DNA from: a virus
DNA: 55,392 bases
IMG/VR virus record: IMGVR_UViG_3300035701_004790
Location: 1 to 55,392 of that record
Direction: 5' to 3' (one strand)
Position numbers and translations under genes: made by a program. This document shows positions 17,422 to 18,814 of this stretch, one piece after another. The notes below the pieces were generated by a model that was not told the DNA's origin, made no database searches, and saw only the letters and a program-made list of their open reading frames with translations. Every line of letters starts with the position of its first letter. Within the stretch, counting starts at the first letter, position 1.

Positions 17422-17769
17422 TTATTTTAATTGTTTAATTTCATCTCTAAGTTTACAAGCATTTTCAAAGTCCTGTGCTTGTATTGCCTCATTTAGCTTA
17501 ACTGTCAACTCATCTTTCGATTGTTTTAATTTGGCTTTTGATTTTGTTTGTTTCGTGGTTCTTTCAAATCTTTGTCCACCGTTGATACTTGTCCACACTT
17601 CTTTTTTTATCATGTGTGTTTCAGTTTCAGAAATTTCTTCTGTTTTGTTGAAGTTTTTATTATCATCTTGAGGAAATGATACATCAGACAATTTACCACT
17701 TATTGAAAAGTGAAAACTATCTTCATTGAATAAACTGTCGAAAAATGAACTTAAAAAGTCTTTTCTCAT
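17422..17769 (-). CDS. Small UVR-domain protein (115 aa)
   Basis: Residues ~79-115 match the UVR motif found in UvrB, UvrC, McsA and related proteins: L-x-x-x-L-x-x-A-I-x-x-x-D-F-E-x-A-x-x-L-R-D-E-I-x-x-L. This is a helical hairpin used for protein-protein contact. The N-terminal part is polar with no zinc-binding cysteines, so it is not a complete McsA. It is monocistronic: a host-type promoter lies 31-60 bases upstream and a strong terminator 70 bases downstream. A plausible role is binding a host UvrA/UvrB- or Clp-type partner early in infection. That is inference; only the motif is seen. Confidence 0.7.
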   Translation of the reverse strand: MRKDFLSSFFDSLFNEDSFHFSISGKLSDVSFPQDDNKNFNKTEEISETETHMIKKEVWTSINGGQRFERTTKQTKSKAKLKQSKDELTVKLNEAIQAQDFENACKLRDEIKQLK

Positions 17770-17829: not shown

Positions 17830-17834
17830 TAAAA

Positions 17835-17868
17835 AAAATGCCATAATTGCAGTCAATTATGGCATTTT
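17835..17868 (-). terminator. Strong intrinsic terminator of the large ncRNA
   Basis: A perfect 15-bp stem (17835-17849 with 17854-17868, arm AAAATGCCATAATTG, loop 4 nt). On the minus strand it is followed by eight T's. It ends transcription from the 18784-18814 promoter. Confidence 0.85.
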
Positions 17869-18777
17869 GTCTAATGTTTTGAATATTGAACGTTTTCAAC
17901 ATTCTTAGCACGGACAGACAGGATCACACTGCCATCTTCACCTGTTAGGGTGATATTCTAATAGTTAAACTACATCCGTATAAACGCCTGAGACTACAGC
18001 ATTTCAGTAGCACTTTCGGAGAATTATCCCTTAACGGGTTCTCTTCTTATCCACCCACCTTTCGGCAAGTACGCTACAATCGCAAGTTCCTAACGGGAAC
18101 CAATCGTTTCGTCAGAGTATTTTCAGTTACGTCCACCACTGCACTATCCCTTTCATGACAGTCTAAAGGAGATGCCTCCTAACAACGAGTCGTATCATCT
18201 GATTGACCTTGAGGGCCAACCATTACCGTATATTACAACGGTAGTTTGCGACTTACTACTCTAACGTCTCAGCACTTGATCTTTTATGTATCCATAATAG
18301 GGATATACTTTTGGTATATATCGGACTTGAGAAAGTTGTGGCTGAGACTCGGCTAACTACCTTTTGGATAGCCAATACCAAACAACTCTCTGTGACTTGC
18401 GATCACGATTCAATTTGTCTTCACGCTTTTGGCAACAAAAACAAAAGAAATTGGTAATAGCTCTATGTCCTTGCGAGACTTCAAACCATATCCTACGTTT
18501 TATGATCGTATCTTTCAATACTTATTCTGACTCCGTTAGTCAAACTTGACATCTAATCGCCTACAGTCGTAAGACCCTCGACAAATAAACCTCAAACACA
18601 ACGCTTGCTTGATTGTACCCTTCACCTTTCGGTGAGAGGTCGAAACTATGGTGTTCTTACCACAGCCCCTTTATAACCATTACTGGCTTTATCTCATGGA
18701 CTTCAAGCAGCCCATATTTTAAATATTTTCAAAGAACAAATTCTTTTGTGGGGAAATATCCCCGTTGTTTCTAATTG
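17835..18777 (-). ncRNA. Large structured non-coding RNA (~940 nt), class unassigned
   Basis: A protein-free stretch, visibly more GC-rich (about 40% in two 60-base lines) than its AT-rich flanks. It has a host-type promoter at its 5' end and a perfect terminator at its 3' end. Many hairpins are visible: 18622-18635 (GAAA tetraloop on the minus strand), 18646-18665, 18528-18542, 18225-18242, 18167-18180, 18086-18100, 18018-18043, 17938-17953 and 17881-17904. Strand is supported by wobbles. Stems at 17881-17904, 18646-18665, 18203-18219 and 18057-18066 pair with G-U on the minus strand but would have A-C mismatches on the plus strand. Size, phage location and tetraloops recall the giant phage RNAs GOLLD and ROOL, but I cannot confirm homology. 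No tRNA, tmRNA, RNase P or intron core was recognised. Confidence 0.7.
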
Positions 18778-18783
18778 AGAAGA

Positions 18784-18814
18784 CAAACTTACAATAATAT
18801 TACATGTAAGTCAA
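18784..18814 (-). promoter_or_regulatory. Bacteroidota-type promoter for the large ncRNA
   Basis: The minus strand reads TTG, 20 bases, TAAGTTTG, a perfect TAnnTTTG -7 box. Transcription would start near 18777, just before the first hairpin of the RNA (18750-18763, GGGGA/TCCCC). Confidence 0.65.

What the first reader, a model, noticed from the sequence alone, without database searches (positions are those of the whole stretch)
17835..18777. A ~940-nt structured phage RNA with its own promoter and terminator
Seen: a GC-richer island with at least ten hairpins, GNRA-type GAAA loops, a perfect host-type promoter (TTG-N20-TAAGTTTG) at its 5' end and a perfect 15-bp terminator with eight T's at its 3' end. 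At least four stems pair only on the minus strand, through G-U. Established: giant ornate RNAs such as GOLLD and ROOL occur in phages. Inference: this is a member or a new class of such RNAs, expressed from early infection.
Basis: partly seen in the sequence, partly recalled or inferred. Interest (0 to 1): 0.88.

Follow-up and report, generated by a model that had tools for sequence, protein, structure and literature searches.

The report
Phage GOLLD RNA with rRNA-style leader
The phage carries a known kind of giant cage-forming RNA (GOLLD), and its transcript starts like a host ribosomal-RNA operon and ends in an odd tRNA-shaped piece, which suggests how a phage makes so long a non-coding RNA.

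Summary
Window 17831-18814 (minus) is a discrete RNA gene with a perfect Bacteroidota promoter, an ~940-nt structured transcript and a perfect terminator. Its 3' half (17985-18390) passes Rfam's GOLLD threshold (RF02032, 158.3 bits, E 1.5e-42, full model). Its 5' half is supported by compensatory changes in relatives (29 of 87 pairs). It is therefore a GOLLD RNA, not a ROOL and not a new class.

(1) Between promoter and GOLLD lie a small hairpin and GTTCTTTGAAA, the same boxA found in Bacteroidota 16S rRNA leaders. GTTCTTTRA sits there in 57 of 73 viral GOLLDs (about 1 expected) and tracks the Bacteroidota promoter almost perfectly. (2) The GOLLD 3' end abuts an aberrant tRNA cloverleaf (17908-17979), identical over 71 nt in a phage whose fourfold-degenerate sites differ by 28%. 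(3) Other boxA copies in these phages mostly precede tRNA clusters, a tmRNA and a CRISPR array.

Best reading: a GOLLD cage RNA made through host rRNA-type antitermination. Nothing was tested experimentally; oligomer formation, boxA activity and expression timing are inferred.

The parts
18784..18814 (-). Bacteroidota-type promoter TTG-N20-TAAGTTTG; transcription start inferred a few nt downstream (~18776-18783)
   Evidence: Sequence; same promoter architecture upstream of 55/57 boxA-bearing viral GOLLDs, shuffle mean 0.5
18750..18763 (-). Leader hairpin GGGGA-TATT-TCCCC, in the place of the boxB-like hairpin of other GOLLD leaders; probably the collapsed acceptor stem of a tRNA-like element that L007 still has there
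   Evidence: Folds; L007 element scores 30.2 bits with tRNA model R1
18727..18737 (-). boxA, GTTCTTTGAAA
   Evidence: Same motif in Bacteroidota 16S leaders; GTTCTTTGAAA in 50/73 viral GOLLD leaders against 0.28 expected
18391..18726 (-). GOLLD 5' domain (variable half)
   Evidence: 87 pairs, 97.7% of cells paired, 29 pairs with compensatory change against 0-3 in slid controls
17985..18390 (-). GOLLD 3' domain (universally conserved half), full Rfam model
   Evidence: RF02032 158.3 bits, E 1.5e-42, model positions 1-416; 18 pairs with compensatory change
17908..17979 (-). Aberrant tRNA cloverleaf about 5 nt after GOLLD: 6-nt anticodon loop, no GG in the D loop, T loop TGTGATC, no CCA
   Evidence: RF00005 37.2 bits (gathering 29) when the stretch is scanned alone; best tRNA-model hit of the whole window; 0/71 changes against L007; ARAGORN misses it
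17881..17904 (-). 10-bp hairpin GAATGTTGAA-AACG-TTCAATATTC
   Evidence: Folds alone; one difference in L007 turns a G-U pair into A-U
17831..17868 (-). Intrinsic terminator, 15-bp stem plus T8
   Evidence: Sequence; compensating base pair in L007
18983..21568 (-). Ribonucleotide reductase gene upstream (context)
   Evidence: PF02867, PF00317
17422..17769 (-). 115-aa protein with a UvrB/UvrC motif, downstream (context)
   Evidence: PF02151

Best explanation
This is a GOLLD RNA of a Bacteroidota phage with its own transcription unit built like a small ribosomal-RNA operon. Host RNA polymerase starts at a host-type promoter. The first ~50 nt carry a hairpin and a boxA; the host NusB-S10 (NusE) antitermination machinery binds the boxA and keeps polymerase on the long untranslated RNA, and may help it fold as it emerges (inferred). 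The ~750-nt two-domain RNA then folds and, by homology with the solved GOLLD, assembles with copies of itself into a hollow cage (inferred). Directly at its 3' edge sits a conserved but odd tRNA-shaped element; most likely it marks or protects the end of the GOLLD RNA, as tRNAs do in polycistronic rRNA/tRNA transcripts, rather than decoding (inferred). Transcription stops at the strong terminator. Shown here: promoter, GOLLD homology, structure conservation, boxA and hairpin conservation, cloverleaf conservation, terminator. Not shown: NusB binding, processing, cage assembly, timing.
For: GOLLD. boxA: present at a fixed place in 50-57 of 73 viral GOLLDs against 0.3-1.1 expected from the rest of the same contigs; in four 5'-domain clusters that blastn does not join to one another; joint with the Bacteroidota promoter in 56 loci, neither in 26, one without the other in 4; same motif at -80 to -180 before Bacteroidota 16S. 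Leader hairpin more stable than shuffles in 54/59 leaders, stems differ but keep pairing. Of 16 boxA sites outside GOLLD leaders, 5 precede tRNA clusters, 5 start a tmRNA (checked with Rfam in one), 1 leads a CRISPR array, 1 a further candidate RNA. Tandem GOLLDs in G002 and G009 each have their own boxA with a tRNA-like piece between. Cloverleaf. Cage: solved 14-mer of GOLLD env-38 (PMC12286853). boxA is necessary and sufficient for rRNA antitermination complexes, which may aid folding (PMC10250234).
Against: No expression, binding or structure data for this RNA. Most boxA-bearing loci are related (47 of 57 fall in one 5'-domain cluster), so the counts are not independent events. In the window the boxA could pair with AAAGAA just upstream and be hidden. 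GOLLDs of Streptococcus prophages lack the motif, so boxA is not part of GOLLD as such. The cloverleaf scores only 20 bits with my tRNA model, and most other GOLLD loci end in a terminator without one. The window may be a fragment of a larger phage genome.
Confidence: 0.62

Rival explanations
1. Ordinary GOLLD RNA; the GTTCTTTGAAA block is a conserved structural piece of the GOLLD 5' end in Bacteroidota phages, not an antitermination signal.
For: It lies at the 5' edge of the RNA at a nearly fixed distance; in the window it can pair with upstream AAAGAA.
Against: It is shared by 5' domains that do not align with one another, matches 16S leaders and recurs before tRNAs, tmRNA and a CRISPR array.
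Confidence: 0.2
2. The 3' cloverleaf is only a decaying remnant of a tRNA cluster next to GOLLD and has no role.
For: GOLLD often lies in tRNA islands and a pseudo-tRNA inside GOLLD is reported in mycobacteria (PMC6582537); T loop, D loop and anticodon loop are abnormal; the 5' tRNA-like element of L007 is collapsed to a hairpin in the window.
Against: 0/71 changes while fourfold sites of the neighbouring gene differ by 28% (chance 9e-11 if neutral); 14 of 21 cloverleaf pairs keep pairing through changes on both sides across relatives.
Confidence: 0.3
3. The cloverleaf is a working, if unusual, tRNA used for decoding and GOLLD is its carrier.
For: L118 keeps a possible 7-nt anticodon loop (ARAGORN: Arg, tcg); several GOLLDs are followed by normal tRNAs.
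Against: Window and L120 have 6-nt anticodon loops; no GG in D loops and no TTC in T loops in window, L118 and L120.
Confidence: 0.07
4. A new class of ornate RNA unrelated to GOLLD, or a ROOL.
For: The 5' half does not align by blastn with most GOLLDs.
Against: The whole GOLLD model is matched above the curated threshold; no ROOL match. The 5' half of GOLLD is known to vary (PMC12286853).
Confidence: 0.02

Closest known systems
GOLLD RNA (Rfam RF02032; cryo-EM structure of GOLLD env-38, PMC12286853)
   Same: Full match of the conserved 3' region above the gathering score; two domains with a variable 5' half; encoded by a phage; own promoter and terminator; tRNA neighbourhood; total length in the usual range (>800 nt).
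   Different: 5' half has no blastn match outside three close relatives; leader with hairpin and boxA and the 3'-abutting aberrant cloverleaf are not described in the papers I could search. Oligomer formation untested.
rRNA operon leader (boxB-boxA-boxC) of Bacteroidota / E. coli rrn
   Same: Promoter, hairpin, boxA of the host type (GTTCTTTGAAA) in front of a long untranslated structured RNA, with tRNA-like elements in the same unit.
   Different: Drives a phage RNA, not rRNA; no boxC or leader-trailer helix shown; factor binding untested.
ROOL RNA
   Same: Large phage RNA that forms a cage, often near tRNAs.
   Different: Different sequence and fold; no match here.
ICP1 ~0.8-kb noncoding transcript (PMC7567579)
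   Same: Large, abundant orf-less phage transcript compared by its authors with GOLLD and ROOL.
   Different: No homology tested; Vibrio phage.
Pseudo-tRNA in mycobacterial GOLLD (PMC6582537)
   Same: A degenerate tRNA tied to a GOLLD gene.
   Different: There it lies inside the RNA; here it lies directly after the 3' domain and is under constraint.

Membership tests
GOLLD RNA | Sequence and structure match of the conserved 3' region (RF02032 at or above 150 bits) | tested here: met
   158.3 bits, model 1-416 of 416, E 1.5e-42
GOLLD RNA | Secondary structure conserved by covariation | tested here: met
   29/87 (5' half) and 18/117 (3' half) pairs with changes on both sides; slid controls for the 5' half 0-3
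GOLLD RNA | Structured, variable 5' region before the 3' region | tested here: met
   Structured domain 18391-18726; alignable only in L007, L118, L120
GOLLD RNA | Encoded by a phage or prophage, often near tRNAs | tested here: met
   Virus record with tail and replication genes; tRNA-like element adjacent; no normal tRNA in the window
GOLLD RNA | Assembles into a 14-subunit RNA cage | not testable with these tools
   Known for env-38 (PMC12286853); here inferred by homology
GOLLD RNA | Expression rises in lytic growth | not testable with these tools
   No RNA data; reported for other GOLLDs (PMC12286853, PMC7567579)
ROOL RNA | Match to the Rfam ROOL model | tested here: not met
   Only GOLLD matched at gathering
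rrn-type antitermination site | boxA of the host rRNA type in the 5' leader | tested here: met
   GTTCTTTGAAA 18737-18727; same motif in Bacteroidota 16S leaders
rrn-type antitermination site | Hairpin (boxB-like) upstream of boxA | tested here: met
   18763-18750; 54/59 GOLLD leaders
rrn-type antitermination site | boxC and leader-trailer helix | tested here: inconclusive
   A 7-bp match (TTTGTCT/AGACAAA) begins inside the promoter, so it is probably not transcribed
rrn-type antitermination site | Binds NusB-S10 and prevents Rho termination | not testable with these tools
   Needs a binding or reporter assay
tRNA | Cloverleaf above RF00005 gathering score | tested here: met
   37.2 bits against 29 when scanned alone; 20.3 bits with own model, best in window
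tRNA | 7-nt anticodon loop, D-loop GG and T-loop TTC | tested here: not met
   6-nt loop CTAACA, D loop without GG, T loop TGTGATC

The most novel reading that the evidence does not exclude
The boxA leader does more than keep polymerase going: abundant GOLLD transcripts draw the host NusB-S10/SuhB antitermination complex away from rRNA operons, so that the phage lowers ribosome synthesis while its own stable RNAs (GOLLD, tmRNA, tRNAs, CRISPR), all with boxA leaders, form one boxA-driven regulon. This could also relate to the reported pull-down of ribosomes with GOLLD.
Probability: 0.12. Interest if true: 0.85.

Novelty: new variant of a known kind. Interest (0 to 1): 0.6.

Why it matters
GOLLD RNAs form the largest RNA-only cages known to me, yet nobody knows what they do or how a phage makes a long untranslated RNA that host Rho should cut short. 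A host-type boxA leader on most Bacteroidota-phage GOLLDs gives a concrete, testable answer to the second question and a handle on the first: it links GOLLD to the factors of ribosome synthesis. It also gives a simple sequence signature for finding other stable RNAs in phage genomes. The aberrant but conserved tRNA shape at the 3' edge offers a testable idea of how the RNA's end is set.

Tried and rejected
ROOL or another Rfam family: no match. DNA relatives in named phage records: none. A second GOLLD in the window: none. GOLLD in 198 Bacteroidota chromosomes: none found, but the controls did not ring either, so this shows nothing. Pattern GGGCTGCTTGAAGTCCAT for more close relatives: five of eight hits were chance matches in genes. 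Leader-trailer helix TTTGTCT/AGACAAA: overlaps the promoter, rejected. 16S leader of Flaviramulus: contig ends too early; replaced by a phylum sample. I first read the L118 cloverleaf as lacking an anticodon loop (so written in my notebook); on rechecking, a 7-nt loop with anticodon UCG is possible, so I do not claim that these elements are all anticodon-less. Several genome-contig pattern hits (such as L146, L148, L150) do not look like GOLLD and were not verified; the main boxA counts rest on viral loci only, but the contingency includes those hits among its 26 'neither' loci.

Full report
What is there. The minus strand of 17831-18814 holds one complete RNA gene: promoter TTG-N20-TAAGTTTG (18814-18784), a ~50-nt leader, a long structured RNA, and a 15-bp terminator with T8 (17868-17831). 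The stretch is GC-richer than its surroundings, has no long ORF on its own strand, and folds far better than shuffles, more so on the minus than on the plus strand. It lies between a ribonucleotide reductase gene and a small UVR-motif gene of a phage with tail and replication genes.

What it is. cmscan of the whole window gives a single match above a curated threshold: GOLLD, RF02032, 17985-18390 (-), 158.3 bits, E 1.5e-42, the complete 416-position model. Rfam models only the conserved 3' region. The 336 nt before it form a structured domain that is alignable in three relatives: L007 (about 96% identical RNA), L118 and L120 (72-73%). In that domain 97.7% of base-pair cells are paired, and 29 of 87 pairs change on both sides; sliding the partners by 1-3 columns leaves 0-3. 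The 3' domain has 18 such pairs of 117. With only four sequences this is modest in number but clear against the controls; the structure was derived from these sequences, so the cells-paired figure is flattered, the compensatory counts less so. In L118 the gene order helicase, reductase (a distant one), GOLLD, tail genes is kept.

The leader. Directly before the 5' domain stands GTTCTTTGAAA (18737-18727). In 73 viral GOLLD loci with enough upstream sequence the exact motif lies at -700 to -1000 from the GOLLD 3' signature in 50, and GTTCTTT[AG]A in 57; from its density elsewhere in the same contigs 0.28 and 1.05 were expected. Of 57 boxA-bearing loci tested for a promoter, 55 have TTG-N17-22-TAnnTTTG within 250 nt upstream (0.5 in shuffles). 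Over all loci, 56 have both, 26 neither and 4 only one. Between promoter and boxA lies a small hairpin, typically UAAAACAAAUCGGAAAAGUCCGAUAC-GUUCUUUGAAA; 54 of 59 leaders are more stable than their shuffles by 1.5 s.d. or more, and stem sequences vary while pairing (CGGA/UCCG, AGGA/UCCU and others). The same motif, GTTCTTTGAAA, GACA or GATA, stands 80-180 nt before 16S in most Bacteroidota rRNA leaders that I could read. This is boxA, which recruits NusB-S10 and is necessary and sufficient for the rRNA antitermination complex (PMC10250234).

Is it only a conserved piece of GOLLD? Four lines speak against that. The 5' domains carrying it fall into four clusters that do not align with one another by blastn (the largest holds 47 of the 57, so the counts are not independent). 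It matches the host's own boxA. In two relatives with tandem GOLLDs (G002, G009) each copy has its own boxA. And of the 16 boxA copies elsewhere in these contigs, five lie before tRNA clusters, five at the start of a tmRNA (RF00023 match in L016, 73.6 bits; the other four share its 5' sequence), one before a CRISPR array, and one before another candidate RNA. The motif thus marks untranslated RNAs in these phages.

The 3' element. About 5 nt after the GOLLD 3' domain, 17979-17908 forms a tRNA cloverleaf. It was missed by ARAGORN and by the filtered whole-window scan, but scores 37.2 bits with RF00005 (gathering 29) when scanned alone, and is the best hit of an independent tRNA model over the window (20.3 bits). 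It is aberrant: 6-nt anticodon loop CTAACA, no GG in the D loop, T loop TGTGATC. L118 and L120 have such an element downstream of GOLLD (there ~70 and ~45 nt further on), with T loops TGAAAAT and TGTAAAT, and L007 has a second one between promoter and boxA, of which the window keeps only a GGGGA/TCCCC hairpin. Across them 14 of 21 pairs change on both sides (one of the four rows is the 5' element, so homology of all rows is not certain, and the alignment was fitted to the cloverleaf). Against L007 the 3' element has 0 changes in 71 nt, the 3' domain 8 in 406, the 5' domain 18 in 347, while 61 of 219 fourfold sites of the reductase differ; a neutral remnant would stay unchanged with probability 9e-11. 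Retained, but hardly for decoding.

How it most likely works. Host polymerase starts at the host-type promoter; the boxA-hairpin leader loads the host rRNA antitermination complex, which protects an ~0.9-kb untranslated RNA from Rho and may assist its folding (step inferred); the RNA folds into its two domains (shown by conservation) and assembles into a cage like that of GOLLD env-38 (inferred from PMC12286853); the cloverleaf sets or guards the 3' end (inferred), and the terminator ends transcription. What the cage does for the phage remains open; published ideas are encapsulation of tRNAs or ribosomes (PMC12286853), and GOLLD was dispensable for phage production in one Lactobacillus prophage (cited in PMC7567579).

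Known and new. GOLLD, its 5'/3' halves, its cages and its tRNA neighbourhood are known. A pseudo-tRNA within GOLLD is known from mycobacteria (PMC6582537). I found no mention of boxA or antitermination with GOLLD in the searchable open papers; subscription journals and preprints are not covered, so priority is not certain. Streptococcus GOLLDs lack the motif; from memory, streptococci have no Rho, which would fit but was not tested.

Noticed in passing
L016 5276-5693 (-); also at boxA sites in L023, L057, L079, L090: Phage-encoded tmRNA (RF00023, 73.6 bits in L016) convergent with GOLLD, with its own promoter and boxA; missed by ARAGORN.
   Followed up: partly
L008 13730-14500 (+): boxA directly before a CRISPR array (36-nt repeat GTTGTGTATGGTCTTCATTTGAAAGGTAATTACAAC) in a phage relative; an ORF end with a TnpB/Cas12-like zinc ribbon lies upstream.
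   Followed up: partly
G002:C1:66660-68085 (L136, L139) and G009:C1:19532-20947 (L135, L140): Two tandem, diverged GOLLD RNAs in one phage (about 177 and 69-87 bits), each with boxA, with a degenerate tRNA-like piece between them.
   Followed up: partly
L073 about 13704 down to 12950 (-): Candidate ~720-nt noncoding RNA with promoter, hairpin, boxA, weak tRNA-like 3' part and terminator; no Rfam match at gathering; not more stable than shuffled sequence.
   Followed up: partly
L007 6001-9519, G007, G009: Ribonucleotide reductase interrupted in frame by some 270-330 aa, probably an intein, absent from the window's gene.
   Followed up: no
L149 3818-3877 (+): Directly after the GOLLD of a Streptococcus porci prophage lies a tRNA-like sequence lacking its anticodon arm.
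   Followed up: no
L118 2415-3773: At the same locus as the window's reductase, relative L118 has a much more distant reductase (23% identity), so the enzyme was exchanged while GOLLD stayed.
   Followed up: no
window 17422-17769: 115-aa protein whose only recognised domain is a UvrB/UvrC motif, directly after the GOLLD terminator.
   Followed up: no
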